DNA of 35,905 nucleotides from Actinomycetes bacterium (GTDB lineage: Bacteria > Actinomycetota > Actinomycetes > Propionibacteriales > Propionibacteriaceae), in NCBI GenBank assembly GCA_021803025.1, contig JAJZQV010000022.1:1-35905 (forward strand). The letters are read 5' to 3'. The notes under the pieces are model-generated. The model saw only the letters and a program-made list of their open reading frames with translations. It did not search any database and was not told where the DNA came from. Shown one piece after another: positions 7,421 to 35,905 of this stretch. Numbering within the stretch: position 1 is the first letter of the stretch; each line of letters begins with the position of its first letter. The position numbers and the translations under genes were made by a program.

Positions 7421-7883
7421 CTGGTCGGCTCCATTCCGGTCCCTTGCATGGACAAGAGTGCCATACCCAGGTCGAGCAGGGTTGAACGCCGGGCCGGATC
7501 ACTCTCGGCCCCCATCTGAGCCGCTGTGATGGAATGGCCGGTCATATCCAAGAAGTCTCTCATCGTCGGGTTGTGGCGCGCTCGCCATCGCCTTCGAGTC
7601 GATGAGCGTGGGTACCGCCATGCCGGCCGCGGCCGCCGACCTCGGCCAGCGCGAGCTGTACACCACAGACGCCCGGCGAGAGCCCGAGATCGCGACCGCG
7701 CGACAGACCGCGGAACGCCGAGCCCCGCCCGTCCGCGATGTCCATCCGCGACCTCCAAATGTGAGCAGTTCACCCCCTGCCGATGTGTACGCCGTGGCAC
7801 CTCGCTGTGGCTCCGCTGTGAGCCTGCGGGGCTTCAGCGCGCTTCAAGGCAAGCGGCCTGTGGCAACGGGAGACGGCGGGAGG

Positions 7884-7920
7884 AGCAACGAAAAGGGCCC
7901 ACGGCGTGTGCCGTCGGCCC
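7884..7920 (-). terminator. Rho-independent terminator of the candidate small RNA
   Basis: On the minus strand an 11-bp stem with one mismatch (GGGCCGACGGC / GCCGTGGGCCC) and ACAC loop is followed by TTTTCGTT. The T-run makes the orientation unambiguous: it ends transcripts coming from the right, which has no protein gene on that strand for hundreds of bases. Confidence 0.8.
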
Positions 7921-7998
7921 GAAGGGATCTGCTCGCTTGTGGCGCGGGCCCGCCGGGGGGATAGGGGGCCCGCGCCGCAACCAAGCAGATGCTCCATG
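7884..7998 (-). ncRNA. Candidate small RNA resembling actinobacterial 6C RNA
   Basis: Read on the minus strand from about 7998, an outer 7-bp stem (ATCTGCT at 7990-7984 with AGCAGAT at 7933-7927) encloses a 10-bp perfect stem (GGCGCGGGCC / GGCCCGCGCC, 7976-7967 with 7950-7941). The 16-nt loop of that stem is CCCTATCCCCCCGGCG, containing six consecutive cytosines. A rho-independent terminator follows immediately (7920-7884). A structured, C-rich-loop RNA of about 100 nt ending in a terminator fits what is known of the actinobacterial 6C sRNA (also called B11 in Mycobacterium), which regulates mRNAs by C-rich loop pairing to G-rich sequences. The exact 5' end is inferred and may lie near the palindrome at 7995-8006. 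Family identity is my judgement from structure, not from a covariance search. Confidence 0.6.
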
Positions 7999-8269
7999 CT
8001 TGCATGTTCCGCCCACGTACGCCAGTGATGGGGAGAGCGTTTCGTCCGGGGGTGAGCACCAACCGCTCGACGCCGCGGGCGCGACCACGACGTGGGTGAC
8101 CCGACGCGCGGGACGGCAGGCGGCGAGAGCGGCGCCGGCCCGGGTGGGTGCCGATCTGCCCGGTCGGGGGTTGGCTCCTCGTCCGGGGTGACAGAGTGGG
8201 GTGGGTCGGCCCCAGTGGCCTGGGGGCGGCAGGACGACACCCGTATCGGGTCGAGACGAAGGAGACAGT

Positions 8270-8791
8270 GTGGACGCTCGCGACATCCTCGTCGACGCGG
8301 CAGGACGGCCGGTCGACACCGCGCGGCAGGTGCTCAAGGGAATCACACCGGACATCGCCAACCGCATGCCGGACGACGCCCACTCCTCCATCACTTGGCT
8401 GGTCTGGCACTCCGGCCGCCAGATGGACGCCCAGCTTTCGGGGCTGTCGGGTACTCCCCAGGTCTGGCGGGAGGCTGGCTGGGCGGACCGGTTCTCCCTC
8501 GACCGGCCCAAGGACGCCATGGGGTTCGGCGACGAGCCGGCGGACGTGGCGAAAGTGACGGTCACCGACACAGCGCTGCTCACCGGCTACCTCGCCGCGG
8601 TGGTGGACGCGCTCGTCGCGTACGTCCGGGGCCTGTCGGACTCCGACCTCGACGACGTCATCGGGCACTTCGGGGGCGAGCCGGTCACCCGGGGCGTACG
8701 GATCGTCAGCATGATCGACGACGCCGTCGCCCACGTGGCGCAGGCCGCGTACCTCCGCGGCCTCCTCGAGAACTGGCGCATCGGGTACTGA
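8270..8791 (+). CDS. DinB-like four-helix protein (DUF664/mycothiol transferase-like)
   Basis: 173 aa from GTG at 8270, with GAAGGAGAC directly upstream. The predicted all-helical protein has the DinB-superfamily pattern of spaced histidines: WLVWHSGRQMDAQL near residues 45-55 and DDAVAHVAQAAYLRGLL near the C-terminus, which in the superfamily bind a divalent metal. Actinobacterial members include mycothiol-dependent transferases/isomerases and many uncharacterised DUF664 proteins; the specific reaction is unknown. In-frame upstream starts at 8201 lack a ribosome-binding site and add arginine-rich sequence. The gene stands alone, with no operon partner on its strand. Confidence 0.75.
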   Translation: MDARDILVDAAGRPVDTARQVLKGITPDIANRMPDDAHSSITWLVWHSGRQMDAQLSGLSGTPQVWREAGWADRFSLDRPKDAMGFGDEPADVAKVTVTDTALLTGYLAAVVDALVAYVRGLSDSDLDDVIGHFGGEPVTRGVRIVSMIDDAVAHVAQAAYLRGLLENWRIGY

Positions 8792-29730: not shown

Positions 29731-31821
29731 ATGGCGAAGAGCATCTACGTGATGTCGCCGGAGGGCCTGGTCGGCAAGTCGGCCATCGCCCTCGGTGTCA
29801 TCGAGGCCCTGGCCCGCGAGGTCTCCTCGGTCGGCGTGTTCCGTCCGATCATCCGCTCCGACGGGCGTGACGGCATCCTCGAGACCCTGGTCAGCCAGCC
29901 CGCCGTCAACGGGGTGTACGACCTGTCGTACGGCGTCGAGTACGCGGCCGTGCATCGCGACCCTGACGAGGCGCTGAGCGAGATCATCGCGAAGTACTCG
30001 GAGCTGCAGTCCCGGTACGACGCGATGGTGATCCTCGGCTCCGACTTCACCGACGTCCTCGGCAGCACGGAGTTCGCGTACAACGCGACGATCGCCGCGA
30101 ACCTCAACGCGCCCGTCCTGCTCGTCGTCCGGGGCAACGACAAGACGCCCGAGGGCGTCCGCCACCTCGTCGACAACGCACTCGACGAGCTGACGATGCA
30201 CCACTGCCAGGCCGTCGGCGTCGTCGCGTCGCGGATCGCCCCCGATGCCCTCGCCTCGTACCGCGAGGCGCTCGCCGGGATCGACCTGCCCCTCGTCACC
30301 GCCATCCCGGAGCACAAGGTCCTGCCTGCCCCGACCGTACGGACCCAGTTCCGCGCCGTCGGCGCGACGATGATCCGCGGCAACCAGCAGCTGCTCGACC
30401 GTGAGTCGCAAGGCGTGATCGTCTGCGGCATGACGCTGCCGAACGTCCTCGACCGGCTCTTCCCCGAGGCCACCGTGGTCACGGCCTCGGACCGCATCGA
30501 CCTCATCCCCGGCCTCCTGCTCGCCCACACCTCCGGCGCCTTCCCTCCCATGGCGGGGCTCGTCCTCGTCGGCGGCTACGACCTCCCGCCGAGCGTGCAG
30601 AAGCTCATCGACACGCTCGACTCCGACCTGCCCATTGCCACGACGACCGCCGGCACCTTCACGACGTCCGAGAAGCTCTTCGGCCTCGAGGGGTCTGTCA
30701 CCGACTCGGCGCGCAAGATCGAGATCGCGCGTGGCCTGTTCGGTGACAACGTCGACGCCGGCGCGCTCATCGAGGCCATGCACGTCTCGCACGCCGACGT
30801 CCGAACGCCCCTCATGTTCGAGTACCAGCTCATGCAGCGGGCCCGCGCCGACAAGCGCACGATCGTGCTGCCCGAGGGAACCGAGGACCGGATCCTGGAG
30901 TCGGCCGTCGTACTGCTGCGCCGCAACGTCGCCGACCTCATCCTGCTCGCGCCCGAGCACGTCGTGAACCAGCGCTCAGGCCACCTCGGCATCAACCTCG
31001 CCCGCGCCCGCTGCATCGACCCGGCAGACCCCGAGCTCCGCGAGAAGTTCGCCCAGGAGTACGCGAGGCTGCGCGCCAAGAAGGGCGTCACGATCGAGCA
31101 GGCGCGCGACAAGATGGCCGACCTCTCGTACTTCGGCACGATGATGGTCCACTTCGGCATGGCCGACGGGATGGTCTCGGGCTCGATCACGACGACCGCG
31201 AACACGATCCGGCCGTCACTGGAGTTCATCAAGACGAAGCCGGGGACCTCGATCATCTCGAGCTCGTTCCTCATGTGCCTTCCGGACCGCGTCCTCGTGT
31301 TCGGCGACTGCGCCGTGAACCCCGACCCGACCGCCGAGCAGCTCGCGGACATCGCGATCTCGTCGGCCCAGACGGCCGTGGCGTTCGGGATCGAGCCGCG
31401 GATCGCGATGCTCTCGTACAGCACGGGCTCCTCGGGCTCCGGCGCCGACGTCGACAAGGTGCGCGAGGCGACGCGCCTGGTCAAGGAGCGCGCCCCGGAG
31501 CTGCTCGTCGAGGGGCCGATCCAGTTCGACGCCGCGATGGACCCCAGCGTGGCCCGTACGAAGCTGCCCGACTCCCAGGTCGCGGGCCGGGCCACTGTCT
31601 TCGTGTTCCCCGACCTCAACACCGGCAACAACACGTACAAGGCTGTCCAGCGCACCGCGAACGCCGTCGCCATCGGCCCGGTGATGCAGGGCCTGAACCG
31701 GCCGGTCAACGACCTTTCGCGCGGCGCCACCGTGGACGACATCGTCAACACCGTCGCGATCACCGCGATCCAGGCCCAGGCCGTCCCGGCCGGCACCCCG
31801 TCCCCGTTCGCCGAGCAGTAA
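29731..31821 (+). CDS. pta: Phosphate acetyltransferase, long (DRTGG-containing) form
   Basis: 696 aa from ATG. It interconverts acetyl-CoA and acetyl phosphate. The N-terminal third (about 1-200) is the BioD/CobB-like P-loop-fold domain (SIYVMSPEGLVGKSAIALGVIEAL), a DRTGG-type regulatory domain follows (about 215-330), and the catalytic PTA_PTB domain occupies about 370-690 (RTIVLPEGTEDRILES, MADGMVSGSITTTANTIRPS, PDLNTGNNTYKAVQRTA). Domain layout matches E. coli-type Pta. It is followed 16 bp later by ackA, the usual pair. Confidence 0.97.
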   Translation: MAKSIYVMSPEGLVGKSAIALGVIEALAREVSSVGVFRPIIRSDGRDGILETLVSQPAVNGVYDLSYGVEYAAVHRDPDEALSEIIAKYSELQSRYDAMVILGSDFTDVLGSTEFAYNATIAANLNAPVLLVVRGNDKTPEGVRHLVDNALDELTMHHCQAVGVVASRIAPDALASYREALAGIDLPLVTAIPEHKVLPAPTVRTQFRAVGATMIRGNQQLLDRESQGVIVCGMTLPNVLDRLFPEATVVTASDRIDLIPGLLLAHTSGAFPPMAGLVLVGGYDLPPSVQKLIDTLDSDLPIATTTAGTFTTSEKLFGLEGSVTDSARKIEIARGLFGDNVDAGALIEAMHVSHADVRTPLMFEYQLMQRARADKRTIVLPEGTEDRILESAVVLLRRNVADLILLAPEHVVNQRSGHLGINLARARCIDPADPELREKFAQEYARLRAKKGVTIEQARDKMADLSYFGTMMVHFGMADGMVSGSITTTANTIRPSLEFIKTKPGTSIISSSFLMCLPDRVLVFGDCAVNPDPTAEQLADIAISSAQTAVAFGIEPRIAMLSYSTGSSGSGADVDKVREATRLVKERAPELLVEGPIQFDAAMDPSVARTKLPDSQVAGRATVFVFPDLNTGNNTYKAVQRTANAVAIGPVMQGLNRPVNDLSRGATVDDIVNTVAITAIQAQAVPAGTPSPFAEQ

Positions 31822-31837: not shown

Positions 31838-33028
31838 GTGCCCACACCGATCCTCGTCCTGAACTGCGGTTCGAGCTCGATCAAGTACCAGGTCATCGAC
31901 GTCGACGACGAGTCCCGCCTCGCGAGCGGCCTGGTGCAGAAGATCGGGCTGCCCGACACGAGCCTGGAGCACACGAGCGACGGTGAGACGCACCGCCTCG
32001 ACCGGATGGTGGCCGACCACCAGCAGGCGCTGGAGCTCGTGGTGAGCGCGTTCGAGAGGTACGGCCCGGCACTGTCCGACGTCGTGGCCGTCGGCCACCG
32101 GGCCGTGCACGGCGGCGAGTTTTTCCGCGCCCCGGTGCGGATCGACGACGACGTCATCGCGAAGCTGCGCGAGCTCTCGCCGCTTGCGCCCCTGCACAAC
32201 CCGCCCGCCATCGACGGCATCGAGGCCGCCATGGCGAGCCTGCCCGACGTGCCCCACGTGGCCGTCTTCGACACTGCGTTCTTCTCGACGCTGCCGGCGG
32301 AGGCGTACACGTACGCGATCGACGCGGGCATCGCGAAGAAGTACGCGGTGCGCAAGTACGGCTTCCACGGGACGAGCCACAAGTACGTGTCCGAGCGGGT
32401 CGCCGAGCTCATCGAACGCCCGTACGACGAGGTCGACCAGATCGTCTGCCACCTCGGCAACGGCGCGTCGATCTCCGCGATCCGCGGCGGCGTCGCCGTG
32501 GACACCTCGATGGGGCTCACCCCGCTGCAGGGGCTCGTCATGGGCACCCGCTCCGGTGACGTGGACCCGGGCCTGCACGCCTATCTCTCCCGTGAGGCGG
32601 GCATGTCCGTCGGCGAGATCGACCGCCTCCTCAACTCCCGCTCGGGCATCGCCGGCCTCACCGGCGGCTCGAGCGACTTCCGCGACCTCGCGACGCGCAT
32701 CGAGGCGGGCGACGCGGCGGCCAAGCTCGCGTACGACGTGTACATCCACCGGCTCGTGAGCTACATCGGCTCGTACCTCGCCATCCTCGGCGGCATCGAC
32801 GCGATCACGTTCACCGCAGGCGTCGGGGAGAACGACGACGCGGTCCGGGAGTCCGTGTGCAACCGGCTCGCTCCGCTGGGCTTCCTGCTCGACGACGAGG
32901 CGAACAGGATCCGTTCCAAGGAGCCGCGCCGGATCAGCCAGCCCGACTCCCCCATCCAGATCCTCGTGGTCCCCACCAACGAGGAGCTCGCGATGGCGCG
33001 GGAGACCCACAAGCTCATCTCGGCCTGA
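31838..33028 (+). CDS. ackA: Acetate kinase
   Basis: 396 aa from GTG at 31838, with AAGAAGG upstream, 16 bp after pta. It converts acetyl phosphate and ADP to acetate and ATP, or the reverse, in the cytoplasm. ASKHA-fold signatures are VLNCGSSSIKYQ at the N-terminus (phosphate-1 loop), GHRAVHGGEFF, FDTAFFSTLP, CHLGNGASISAIRGG, and TAGVGENDDAVRE near the C-terminus. Length is standard (about 400). With pta it makes the overflow/assimilation route between acetyl-CoA and acetate. Confidence 0.97.
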   Translation: MPTPILVLNCGSSSIKYQVIDVDDESRLASGLVQKIGLPDTSLEHTSDGETHRLDRMVADHQQALELVVSAFERYGPALSDVVAVGHRAVHGGEFFRAPVRIDDDVIAKLRELSPLAPLHNPPAIDGIEAAMASLPDVPHVAVFDTAFFSTLPAEAYTYAIDAGIAKKYAVRKYGFHGTSHKYVSERVAELIERPYDEVDQIVCHLGNGASISAIRGGVAVDTSMGLTPLQGLVMGTRSGDVDPGLHAYLSREAGMSVGEIDRLLNSRSGIAGLTGGSSDFRDLATRIEAGDAAAKLAYDVYIHRLVSYIGSYLAILGGIDAITFTAGVGENDDAVRESVCNRLAPLGFLLDDEANRIRSKEPRRISQPDSPIQILVVPTNEELAMARETHKLISA

Positions 33029-33061: not shown

Positions 33062-33077
33062 GGTTGGGCGCGGCCTG

Positions 33078-33169
33078 TCGGTTCACCATGTTAAGTAGGT
33101 GAGTGGTCGGTTCTCATGGCGTACAGGCCATGTGAACATCCGAGTCACCCACTTAACGTGGTGAACCGA
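33078..33169. repeat. 92-bp nested palindromic element, copy 3
   Basis: Outer arms start TCGGTTCACCATGTTAAGT and end ACTTAACGTGGTGAACCGA, pairing on inward through AGGTGA/TCACCC with a G-T and an A-C position. The inner hairpin is GTTCTCATGGC / GCCATGTGAAC with one mismatch. It aligns without gaps to copies 1 and 2 (about 82% identical to copy 2 by hand count). It lies between convergent genes: ackA ends 49 bp to its left and the rhomboid-like gene ends 32 bp to its right. The outermost base pairs extend one step further (GTCGG...CCGAC). Confidence 0.88.
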
Positions 33170-33201
33170 CACCCCCCCGGACGGACCCACCCAGCACACC
33201 G

Positions 33202-34062: not shown

Positions 34063-34245
34063 GCGCACCACCGTACCCACCCGCGCCCACTGCGTCACAG
34101 GGGCGACGTCTCGTAGGTCGAGCAGCAGCTCGGGTTGTGCGTTCTCCACAAGCAGAAGCCGCCTGAATGCGGCGATACAACAAACCGGAAAGGCAGGGCG
34201 AGGGCGCTTCGACACCCGCTCGCGAAGTGTCGTAGCGTGACCGTC

Positions 34246-35019
34246 ATGGCTCTCGCGCTGGTGACCGGAGGGACTGCAGGCATCGGCCGTGCCTTCGCGG
34301 TCGAGCTGGCGTCCCGCGGCTGGGACCTGGTGCTCGTGGCCCGCGACAGCGCGCGCCTCGAGACCGTCGCCGAAGAGCTGCGGACCACCTACGGGCACAC
34401 CGTGGAGACCGTCACCGCCGACCTCGCCCGCCGCGAGGACGTGCTGCGGGTCGCGGAGCGCATCGAGGACACGTCCTCCCCCGTCGAGATGCTCGTCAAC
34501 AACGCGGGCTTCGGCATCCACGCGTCCCTGCTCGACAAGGACTTCTCCATCCAGGAGAAGGCGCTCGACGTCATGTGCCTCGCCGTCCTGGTCCTCTCCG
34601 GGGCCGCCGGCCGGGCGATGTCCGCCCGCGGCCACGGCTCGATCATCAACATCGGCTCGTCCTCGGGCATCATCACGACGGGCAACTACTCGGCGGTGAA
34701 GGCCTGGGTGAACACCTACACCGAGGGCCTCGCCAACGAGCTCCGCGGCACGGGCGTCCGGGTCACCGCAGTCCTCCCCGGCTGGGTGCACACCGAGTTC
34801 CACGAGCGCGCCGGCATCAACGCCTCCAAGCTGCCCGAGATGGTCTGGCTCGAGGCGGACGAGCTCGTCCGGGAGGCGCTCGACGACAATGCCCGCGGCA
34901 AGGTGATCTCCGTGCCGAGCAGGCGCTGGAGCACCGCCTACTGGGTGGGCCGCCACGCCCCGCGGCCGCTCATCCGCTGGGTGTCGCGCAAGCTCTCCAA
35001 CTCCAGGAAGAACCCGTAG
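34246..35019 (+). CDS. Short-chain dehydrogenase/reductase
   Basis: 257 aa from ATG at 34246. The Rossmann cofactor motif TGGTAGIG is at 7-14, NNAG at 85-88, and the catalytic triad is S139 with Y148-x3-K152 in NYSAVKAW. A basic-residue VARD turn (31-34) after the second strand favours NADP(H). Two GTG codons three and one codon upstream are alternatives; TAGCGT just before resembles a -10, suggesting a leaderless mRNA. Its stop TAG abuts the next ATG without a gap. Context (acyltransferase, FAD oxidase) suggests it reduces a lipid intermediate, possibly an acyl/alkyl-dihydroxyacetone phosphate; this is inference. Confidence 0.9.
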   Translation: MALALVTGGTAGIGRAFAVELASRGWDLVLVARDSARLETVAEELRTTYGHTVETVTADLARREDVLRVAERIEDTSSPVEMLVNNAGFGIHASLLDKDFSIQEKALDVMCLAVLVLSGAAGRAMSARGHGSIINIGSSSGIITTGNYSAVKAWVNTYTEGLANELRGTGVRVTAVLPGWVHTEFHERAGINASKLPEMVWLEADELVREALDDNARGKVISVPSRRWSTAYWVGRHAPRPLIRWVSRKLSNSRKNP

Positions 35020-35829
35020 ATGGCGGAGGCCGACCGCGGGCGGTACCAGTCCGAGATCTTCGCCGGGATACGGTTCGTGTCCCAGGAGCTGCTGCTCCGG
35101 CCGTTCATCTGGCGCATCCTCAAGGTCAACATCCACGGGCTGGCGAACATCGAGAACCTCGAGTCCCCGTTCGTCGTCGTCGCGAACCACTCGTCCCATC
35201 TCGACGCTCCGCTCGTCGTGGGCGCGTTGCCCCGTCGGCTCACGAAGTTCCTGGCGACCGGCGCCGCTGCCGACTACTTCTACGCCTCGAAGCTCAAGTC
35301 ACTGTCCACCGCGCTCGTCGCGAACACGTACCCCATCGAGCGCCGCGGGCTTCGTACCCGCAAGGGCCTGTCCAAGCAGCTCCTGTCCGACGGTGTGCCG
35401 CTGCTGATCTTCCCGGAGGGTACGAGGTCGCGCACCGGCGCCATGGGGCCGTTCACGCCCGGCGTCGCCGCGCTGTGCATCTCGCACAACGCTCCGTGCG
35501 TACCGATCGCCCTCGTCGGCGCGTTCGCCGCCTGGCCGTACGGGCAGGGGCACCTGCCGCGCGGGCGCCCCGAGGTCCACGTCGTGATCGGCCACCCGCT
35601 CACGCCCGCGCCCGGCGAGATCGCCCGGCAGTTCAACGAGCGGATGCGCCGAACCGTGCAGCAGCTGCACGACTCGACCGCGAGGGCCTATGGACTACCC
35701 ACCCTGGACGACTACGCTCGGGCCGTCTCGTTGCGGCAGGCGTCCGTGCCGTCCGCAGTGAGTCCCGTGACACCACCAGAGGTTCCGAACGACGATGGCG
35801 GGAAGCCCGCCGGCAAGGACGACAGATGA
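35020..35829 (+). CDS. 1-acylglycerol-3-phosphate acyltransferase family protein (PlsC-like)
   Basis: 269 aa, starting on the base after the SDR stop. Acyltransferase motif I NHSSHLD (N56-D62, H-X4-D) and motif III FPEGTRSRTG (131-140) are intact; motif II-like YPIERRG is at 104-110. It transfers an acyl group to a glycerophosphate-type acceptor at the membrane. The C-terminal about 35 residues are Pro/Asp/Lys-rich and probably disordered. Its TGA overlaps the next start (ATGA at 35826-35829), so SDR, acyltransferase and the next gene form a tightly coupled operon. Confidence 0.93.
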   Translation: MAEADRGRYQSEIFAGIRFVSQELLLRPFIWRILKVNIHGLANIENLESPFVVVANHSSHLDAPLVVGALPRRLTKFLATGAAADYFYASKLKSLSTALVANTYPIERRGLRTRKGLSKQLLSDGVPLLIFPEGTRSRTGAMGPFTPGVAALCISHNAPCVPIALVGAFAAWPYGQGHLPRGRPEVHVVIGHPLTPAPGEIARQFNERMRRTVQQLHDSTARAYGLPTLDDYARAVSLRQASVPSAVSPVTPPEVPNDDGGKPAGKDDR

Positions 35830-35905
35830 GCGAGAACAGGACCCGTCGCGTCGGACCGGCCTCCGTGAAGCAGCAGAAGTGGTGGGGCTGGGGCGCGGAG
35901 GGCAC
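35826..35905 (+). CDS. FAD-binding oxidase, N-terminus only (alkyl-DHAP synthase-like)
   Basis: Cut by the window end after 26 codons. The visible residues end QQKWWGWGAEG. A K-W-x-G-W-G segment near the N-terminus is characteristic of the vanillyl-alcohol-oxidase-type FAD proteins related to alkylglycerone-phosphate synthase. With an SDR and a PlsC-type acyltransferase directly upstream and coupled starts, an ether-lipid synthesis role is suggested. So little of the protein is visible that the family call rests on this one motif. Confidence 0.55.
   Translation, partial: MSENRTRRVGPASVKQQKWWGWGAEG

What the first reader, a model, noticed from the sequence alone, without database searches (positions are those of the whole stretch)
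34246..35905. Possible ether-lipid operon at the right edge
An SDR, a PlsC-type acyltransferase and the start of a protein with the KWWGWG motif of alkyl-DHAP-synthase-like FAD enzymes are fused by zero-gap and ATGA junctions. Together they could replace an acyl with an alkyl chain on dihydroxyacetone phosphate, reduce the product and acylate it. Ether lipids of this kind are little studied in aerobic Actinobacteria.
Basis: inference. Interest (0 to 1): 0.6.

Follow-up and report, generated by a model that had tools for sequence, protein, structure and literature searches.

The report
Bacterial ether-lipid operon, peroxisome-like enzymes
Three neighbouring genes in this actinobacterium, together with a fourth elsewhere in its genome, look like a bacterial counterpart of the route by which animal peroxisomes make ether lipids, and would offer genes for ether lipids already reported in related bacteria.

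Summary
The window ends at a contig edge; its last 127 bases open contig C116, where the third gene runs to its stop (578 aa). The protein matches alkyl-DHAP synthases (Dictyostelium ADPS E 6e-114, guinea-pig AGPS E 3e-83; next family, glycolate oxidase, 4.5e-21) and keeps the mutagenesis-tested residues (Dictyostelium R352, R447, Y508). Among the 80 best named relatives (of 536), PlsC adjoins AGPS in 77 and SDR in 73. In 31 of 80 a fatty acyl-CoA reductase (FAR) lies nearby, 17 times directly upstream of the SDR. The window's genome has a 44% identical FAR elsewhere. In 198 family genomes 102 have both genes, 3 AGPS only, 10 FAR only, 83 neither. Published chemistry fits: ether-linked alkyl glycolipids in Propionibacterium (Arachnia) propionicum, dimethyl acetals in Subtercola; genomes named for both genera carry the operon. 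Against it: seven presumed Cutibacterium genomes lack both genes although alkyl-ether PG is reported there. The role of PlsC is open.

The parts
34246..35019 (+). SDR, 257 aa; proposed alkyl-(and acyl-)DHAP reductase. Alternative in-frame GTG start at 34237
   Evidence: PF00106 E 3.2e-41; best NCBIfam hit mycolate reductase, 162.5 bits, far below its cut-off of 380; PDB hits are generic SDRs, best E 1.5e-32; YxxxK in 73 of 73, TGxxxGxG in 70 of 73 adjacent homologues
35020..35829 (+). PlsC-type acyltransferase, 269 aa; proposed DHAP acyltransferase or alkyl-G3P sn-2 acyltransferase
   Evidence: PF01553 E 1.4e-19; PDB best hit 1-acyl-G3P acyltransferase 5kym E 1.9e-12; NHxxHxD in 77 of 77 and PEGTR in 70 of 77 adjacent homologues
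35826..35905 (+). Start of the AGPS-like gene (ATGA overlap with PlsC); continues on contig C116 as L006:48-1784, 578 aa in all
   Evidence: contig overlap; domains; PDB hits; residues; fold
35877..35894 (+). KWWGWG motif (residues 18-23) near the N-terminus of AGPS
   Evidence: invariant in 11 of 11 aligned orthologues; KWNGWG in guinea-pig AGPS
31838..33028 (+). ackA (acetate kinase; pta at 29731-31821 precedes it). Upstream neighbour, probably not part of the pathway; recurs upstream in 28 of 80 named loci, once on the other strand
   Evidence: neighbour clustering (29 loci, the window's own included)

Best explanation
The three genes form an operon for the glycerol-ether step of membrane lipid synthesis. 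A fatty acyl-CoA reductase, encoded elsewhere in this genome, supplies fatty alcohol. An acyltransferase makes 1-acyl-DHAP. The AGPS-like flavoenzyme, using oxidised FAD as a scaffold with no net redox change, swaps the acyl group for the fatty alcohol to give 1-alkyl-DHAP. The SDR reduces this to 1-alkyl-G3P, and a PlsC-type enzyme adds the sn-2 acyl chain. The product enters phospho- or glycolipids as 1-alkyl-2-acyl-glycerol. Shown: gene order, AGPS membership by sequence, fold and catalytic residues, intact motifs, FAR in the same genome, conserved synteny and co-inheritance. Inferred: every reaction, the order of steps, and a saturated alkyl ether as end product.
For: AGPS: 2uuu E 6.1e-114 and 4bby 2.7e-83, then glycolate oxidase 4.5e-21. 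The first 37 Foldseek hits are all AGPS. R329, R423 and Y484, equivalent to Dictyostelium R352, R447, Y508 (important by mutagenesis, PMC3509576 passages), are kept in 20 of 20 orthologues of the class sample, 79 of 79 aligned named loci and both PDB sequences; the 80th named locus, L068, has them too. Operon: PlsC 77 of 80, SDR 73 of 80. FAR near the operon in 31 of 80, same strand directly upstream of the SDR in 17. Own FAR: 44% identical, E 4.4e-182; PF07993 E 1.8e-46; PDB fatty acyl-CoA reductase 7eoz E 6.1e-50; its operon homologue L074 has PF07993+PF03015+PF12710. Co-inheritance: 102/3/10/83 of 198 family genomes (AGPS E<=1e-120, FAR E<=1e-60); in the class sample 19 of 20 AGPS-positive but 29 of 177 AGPS-negative genomes have FAR. 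The mammalian alkyl-DHAP reductase DHRS7B is also an SDR (PMC13200781 passages). Chemistry: ether-linked alkyl glycolipids in P. propionicum (passage in PMC11237483); dimethyl acetals in four Subtercola species (PMC5945732); operon in L059 (Arachnia propionica MAG), L088 (S. lobariae), L091 and L093 (S. boreus), with FAR beside it in the three Subtercola loci.
Against: No enzyme or lipid of this organism was measured. Seven genomes of one genus, taken to be Cutibacterium because they alone in the family have CAMP factor, have neither AGPS nor FAR at the cut-offs used, yet alkyl-ether PG is reported in C. acnes, so the operon cannot be the only source of such lipids in the family. FAR occurs without AGPS in 10 of 198 genomes (7 of them one genus, three from genomes 60-82% complete) and AGPS without FAR in 3. 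FAR is not in this genome's operon; it overlaps hisA by 4 bases. The SDR is closest to generic SDRs, so its substrate is a guess from context. In 5 of 19 other class-sample orthologues, all from one unnamed family, and in a named Frankia and a Kineococcus, AGPS has no SDR or PlsC directly upstream. The ten ~35%-identical paralogues keep the same three residues, so these residues alone do not single out this clade. A review places the anaerobic plsA/plsR genes in Propionibacteriales.
Confidence: 0.85

Rival explanations
1. The FAD protein is an ordinary 2-hydroxy-acid oxidase or dehydrogenase (glycolate/D-lactate type), and the lipid genes are chance neighbours.
For: Same FAD_binding_4/FAD-oxidase_C architecture; the best NCBIfam hit is glycolate oxidase GlcD, 132 bits, and no AGPS model is among its 7 hits.
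Against: GlcD is far below its cut-off of 567.9. Non-AGPS PDB hits are weaker by more than 60 orders of magnitude, and none of those listed reaches R423 or Y484. Foldseek ranks AGPS chains in places 1-37. The lipid neighbours recur in 73-77 of 80 loci.
Confidence: 0.04
2. Same pathway, but the operon's PlsC is only the sn-2 acyltransferase on 1-alkyl-G3P, and acyl-DHAP comes from another enzyme.
For: The only PDB hit is a 1-acyl-G3P acyltransferase; NCBIfam AGP_acyltrn is the top hit though below cut-off.
Against: The genome has two other PF01553 proteins with better scores that could serve the sn-2 step, which would leave the operon copy free for DHAP; those two were not classified. The motifs do not decide.
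Confidence: 0.5
3. Ether lipids in these bacteria come from the anaerobic ester-reduction route (PlsA/PlsR or Ger), and the AGPS operon does something else.
For: A review states that plsA/plsR occur in Propionibacteriales (PMC9702350 passages).
Against: PF06050 has no match at E<=1e-10 in this genome or in 197 of 198 family genomes, while two of 14 control genomes rang. That PF06050 marks PlsA/Ger is recalled, not tested here.
Confidence: 0.06
4. The FAR homologue serves wax-ester or storage-lipid synthesis, and the fatty alcohol for AGPS comes from elsewhere.
For: FAR without AGPS in 10 of 198 family genomes and 29 of 177 AGPS-negative class genomes; FAR is outside the operon here.
Against: In 17 loci FAR lies on the same strand just upstream of the SDR, its stop 24-81 bases before the start of SDR similarity, and 102 of 105 AGPS-bearing family genomes have it.
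Confidence: 0.12

Closest known systems
Peroxisomal ether-lipid pathway of animals (GNPAT, AGPS, DHRS7B, FAR1/2)
   Same: Same four enzyme classes: acyltransferase, AGPS flavoenzyme, SDR reductase, fatty acyl-CoA reductase; the three AGPS residues identical
   Different: A bacterial operon with zero-gap and overlapping junctions; PlsC-like instead of GNPAT; FAR carries an extra C-terminal HAD domain
Dictyostelium ADPS (2uuu)
   Same: 37% identity, same fold, R352/R447/Y508 conserved
   Different: Bacterial; the 2uuu stretch aligned here does not include the N-terminal KWxGWG region
Myxococcus xanthus AgpS and ElbD ether-lipid genes (from passages of PMC11868695 and PMC11948995)
   Same: Bacterial AGPS route; FAR and PlsC-like parts linked to ether lipids
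   Different: ElbD is one multidomain protein; here the activities are separate genes. The M. xanthus sequences were not compared
Anaerobic PlsA/PlsR and Ger
   Same: Also yields bacterial ether or vinyl-ether lipids
   Different: Reduces finished ester lipids; PF06050 not found in this genome

Membership tests
AGPS (alkyl-DHAP synthase) | FAD_binding_4 plus FAD-oxidase_C, full-length match to known AGPS | tested here: met
AGPS (alkyl-DHAP synthase) | Catalytic Arg, Arg and Tyr (Dictyostelium R352, R447, Y508) | tested here: met
   R329, R423, Y484; chain numbering offset by 3, worked out by hand
AGPS (alkyl-DHAP synthase) | HHH loop near the C-terminus (its role is recalled) | tested here: met
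   H520-H522, invariant in 11 of 11. The counts are biased because HHHxVG was used to pick ORFs; L068, the one locus dropped, also has HHH
AGPS (alkyl-DHAP synthase) | Overall AGPS fold | tested here: met
   Foldseek places 1-37 all AGPS, TM (query) 0.60-0.69; model pLDDT only 64.6
AGPS (alkyl-DHAP synthase) | Gate-keeping helix of ADPS | not tested
   described in PMC3509576; not examined on the model
AGPS (alkyl-DHAP synthase) | Acyl-to-alkyl exchange activity | not testable with these tools
   needs an enzyme assay
Acyl/alkyl-DHAP reductase (DHRS7B-like SDR) | SDR domain with nucleotide-binding glycines and YxxxK | tested here: met
Acyl/alkyl-DHAP reductase (DHRS7B-like SDR) | Closer to DHRS7B/Ayr1 than to other SDRs | tested here: inconclusive
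   PDB and NCBIfam give generic SDRs; no DHRS7B sequence was compared
PlsC-type LPLAT acyltransferase | Hx4D and EGTR motifs | tested here: met
Fatty acyl-CoA reductase (FAR) | NAD_binding_4 plus Sterile domain, match to a solved FAR | tested here: met
   NAD_binding_4 and solved-FAR match on the own FAR; Sterile seen on the operon homologue L074 only
Anaerobic PlsA/Ger ether route | PF06050-type dehydratase-like protein (domain content recalled) | tested here: not met
   0 in own genome, 1 of 198 in the family at E<=1e-10
Myxobacterial ElbD | One protein with FadD, ACP, FAR and PlsC parts | tested here: not met
   No such extra parts among the hits of the FAR protein (own, NCBIfam; homologue L074, Pfam); no search for an ElbD elsewhere in the genome was made

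The most novel reading that the evidence does not exclude
Actinobacteria carry a complete, stand-alone version of the peroxisomal ether-lipid pathway as a FAR-SDR-PlsC-AGPS gene set, with the operon PlsC as a bacterial DHAP acyltransferase. In relatives such as Subtercola and Herbiconiux, the FAR is flanked by two ferritin-like proteins, one with an intact diiron ligand set and one degenerate. These could form a soluble desaturase that makes the vinyl-ether bond: a third route to plasmalogens beside CarF/PEDS1 and PlsA/PlsR. The window's own genome lacks a match to this desaturase-like protein at E 1e-10 and would make saturated alkyl ethers.
Probability: 0.25. Interest if true: 0.82.

Novelty: new variant of a known kind. 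Interest (0 to 1): 0.62.

Why it matters
Ether lipids and dimethyl acetals in some Actinobacteria have been reported as structures or chemotaxonomic markers; none of the papers that our searches listed ties an operon to them. The operon names candidate genes and predicts which genera make these lipids, so the question becomes testable by knock-out. It also offers bacterial relatives of a human pathway in which loss of AGPS causes rhizomelic chondrodysplasia punctata type 3, and it could show whether the peroxisomal pathway has bacterial relatives as a whole unit.

Tried and rejected
Ordinary FAD oxidase: rejected on score gap, residues, fold and context. Anaerobic PlsA/Ger route: judged unlikely for this genome. 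CarF/PEDS1-type desaturase PF10520: no hit in 30 of 30 genomes, but none of the 14 control genomes rang either, so absence is not shown. Choosing between the two roles of PlsC by motif led nowhere. The AGPS model from 11 sequences is only moderate (pLDDT 64.6) and was used for fold ranking only. A rooted tree of AGPS was not built, because only two eukaryotic sequences were at hand.

Literature: no paper describing this operon in Actinobacteria is among those listed by searches (0 papers; 20 of 269 listed; 5 of 5; 25 of 10,727; 15 of 354; 15 of 19; 15 of 1,326; 6 of 6); the lists were capped, so this is not proof of absence. AGPS homologues in actinobacterial MAGs are in print (PMC11868695 passages), and a fatty-alcohol-forming FcrA together with AGPS in some other bacteria (PMC11948995 passages). 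Pasciak 2003 (JBC) was not held; what it found is taken from passages and a reference entry in PMC11237483. Of no paper was more than passages, or a listing with the start of the abstract, seen.

Rows dropped or special: L068 was left out (its ORF failed my HHHxVG filter) but has the residues. L040 and L041 lack upstream sequence (contig starts). L080, L085 and L115 have an SDR elsewhere in the locus. L096 (Frankia) and L108 (Kineococcus) have neither gene directly upstream; in L108 an SDR lies just downstream on the other strand. The search for related loci kept only the best 80 of 536 relatives, so 77/80 and 73/80 describe near relatives only. In the class sample 14 of 19 orthologues besides the window's own have both neighbours and 5 have neither. 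The ten paralogues are the ten best-scoring ones, not a random draw.

Full report
WHAT IS THERE. The window is the whole of contig C43 of a 3.37-Mb, 191-contig genome. Its nearest named relatives are MAGs, two of them titled Propionibacteriaceae (L037-L039); I take its family for that one. At its right end lie an SDR gene (34246-35019), a PlsC-type acyltransferase gene (35020-35829; its ATG follows the SDR stop with no gap) and the start of a third gene at 35826, overlapping the PlsC stop as ATGA. The last 127 bases are identical to the first 127 of contig C116, and there the third gene runs on to a stop at L006:1784, 578 aa. In three close relatives the genes lie on one contig with the same PlsC-AGPS junction.

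THE THIRD PROTEIN. It has FAD_binding_4 and FAD-oxidase_C. In the PDB sequences it matches Dictyostelium alkyl-DHAP synthase at E 6.1e-114 and guinea-pig AGPS at 2.7e-83; the next family is glycolate oxidase at 4.5e-21. A profile of 11 orthologues gives 3.6e-148 and 9.6e-111, with D-lactate dehydrogenase next at 7.1e-28. An AlphaFold2 model of moderate quality (pLDDT 64.6) has AGPS chains in the first 37 Foldseek places. A review reports that R352, R447 and Y508 of Dictyostelium ADPS matter for catalysis (PMC3509576, passages). Counting along the alignment (offset 3, by hand), these are R329, R423 and Y484 here. They are identical in 20 of 20 orthologues of the class sample (own included), 79 of 79 aligned named loci, the ten best-scoring distant paralogues and both PDB sequences. 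By the same counting they fall on guinea-pig R419, R515 and Y578; PDB entries titled Arg419His and Tyr578Phe exist. At residue 214 the clade shares Asp with the two eukaryotic enzymes, while the ten paralogues have Gln.

THE OPERON IS CONSERVED. One scan of GTDB genomes gave 536 relatives, of which the best 80 were kept. PlsC is adjacent in 77 of 80 and SDR in 73 of 80, in the order SDR-PlsC-AGPS. The hosts include Propionibacteriaceae, Jiangella, Georgenia, Ruania, Subtercola and Herbiconiux. In an even sample of the class, 20 of 197 genomes have this clade at about 57% identity or more (own included); 14 of the other 19 have both neighbours and 5, all of one unnamed family, have neither. Of the ten best ~35% paralogues none has them. 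In the family, 105 of 198 genomes have the gene at E<=1e-120.

THE FATTY-ALCOHOL SUPPLY. Clustering the ORFs of the 80 loci plus the own locus turned up a ~780-aa protein in 31 loci. In 17 it lies directly upstream of the SDR on the same strand, its stop 24-81 bases before the start of SDR similarity. In 13 it lies upstream on the opposite strand and in one (L115) beyond the AGPS gene. One example, L074, carries PF07993, PF03015 and a HAD domain. The window's genome has one homologue, 785 aa, 44% identical, at C54:10913-13270 minus, overlapping hisA by 4 bases; its best PDB match is a fatty acyl-CoA reductase, E 6.1e-50. FAR and AGPS go together: of 198 family genomes 102 have both, 3 AGPS only, 10 FAR only, 83 neither; in the class sample 19 of 20 AGPS-positive and 29 of 177 AGPS-negative genomes have FAR (from; the Fisher P values there ignore shared descent).

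MECHANISM. FAR makes the alcohol; an acyltransferase makes acyl-DHAP; AGPS exchanges acyl for alkyl with FAD as scaffold (mechanism as reviewed in PMC3509576); the SDR reduces the ketone, as the SDR DHRS7B does in mammals (PMC13200781, abstract and passages); a PlsC enzyme acylates sn-2. The genome has three PF01553 proteins, so either acylation could be the operon's. No reaction was shown.

CHEMISTRY IN RELATIVES. PMC11237483 (passages) says that ether-linked alkyl glycolipids were found in Propionibacterium propionicum; the taxonomy puts strain F0230a of that name in Arachnia propionica. A MAG named Arachnia propionica has the operon (L059); the strain whose lipids were studied was not examined. 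Four Subtercola species have 6.9-17% iso-C16:0 DMA plus other dimethyl acetals (PMC5945732 table, partly from earlier papers); S. boreus and S. lobariae loci carry FAR, SDR, PlsC and AGPS. Kineococcus rubinsiae has 2.9% anteiso-C15:0 DMA, which its authors read as a sign of plasmalogens (PMC7472656 passages); K. xinjiangensis, another species, has the AGPS gene without adjacent PlsC (L108). Another Subtercola paper lists no DMA, but 2-OH C14:0 in several species (PMC9287328 passages); PMC7472656 reports that the MIDI system called anteiso-C15:0 DMA by that name, so the two may be one peak (inference).

AGAINST. Seven genomes of one genus, the only ones of the family with CAMP factor and so presumably Cutibacterium, have neither AGPS (E<=1e-120) nor FAR (E<=1e-60), yet PG with alkyl ether is reported in C. 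acnes: another route, uptake or misassignment. The anaerobic PlsA/Ger type is an unlikely source, since PF06050 was found in only 1 of 198 family genomes, though a review places plsA/plsR in Propionibacteriales. The SDR and PlsC have no diagnostic match.

KNOWN OR NEW. All four enzyme classes are known. AGPS homologues in actinobacterial MAGs are in print (PMC11868695). The FAR-SDR-PlsC-AGPS operon and its link to actinobacterial ether lipids appear in none of the papers listed by searches, whose lists were capped. I file it as a new variant of a known kind.

Noticed in passing
L091:2000-2794 and 7512-8324 (minus); also L078, L079, L084, L087, L088, L093-L095, L097-L099, L101, L107, L112, L113, L115: A ~264-aa ferritin-like protein with E45, E77xxH80, E141, E171xxH174 invariant in 15 of 15 aligned lies within the 10-kb flanks in 17 of 80 named loci, 16 of them with a second copy. 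The six second copies read by eye have lost metal ligands. Best but weak fold matches are acyl-ACP desaturases and R2-like oxidases (E 0.0045). It is in 26 of 197 class genomes, 13 of them with this AGPS clade and 21 with FAR; not in the window's genome at E 1e-10. Candidate plasmanyl desaturase in the dimethyl-acetal-bearing Subtercola.
   Followed up: partly
33076-33171: Between ackA and the rhomboid-like gene: an inverted repeat with 45-nt arms, 82% complementary, 6 nt apart. The stretch 33070-33180 folds as RNA at -67 kcal/mol (z -9.4), with no Rfam match. Possibly a two-way terminator or a small mobile element.
   Followed up: partly
G000:C54:10913-13270 (L117:1465-3822 minus): FAR carries a C-terminal HAD-IB hydrolase-like domain and overlaps hisA by 4 bases; the role of the HAD domain is unknown.
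   Followed up: no
L006:48-1784 versus L027-L036: A second, ~35% identical actinobacterial AGPS-like group keeps the catalytic Arg/Arg/Tyr but has Gln for Asp214 and lacks the SDR/PlsC neighbours (ten loci): possibly another alkyl synthase or a different activity.
   Followed up: no
33202 to about 34083 (minus; start not determined): Divergently transcribed rhomboid-domain protein with DUF6576 next to the operon.
   Followed up: no
L104:3608-5539, L065, L045, L070, L097, L107, L110, L111, L114: An AMP-binding (acyl-CoA-synthetase-type) gene recurs within 10 kb of the operon in 9 of 80 loci; could activate fatty acids released by AGPS.
   Followed up: no
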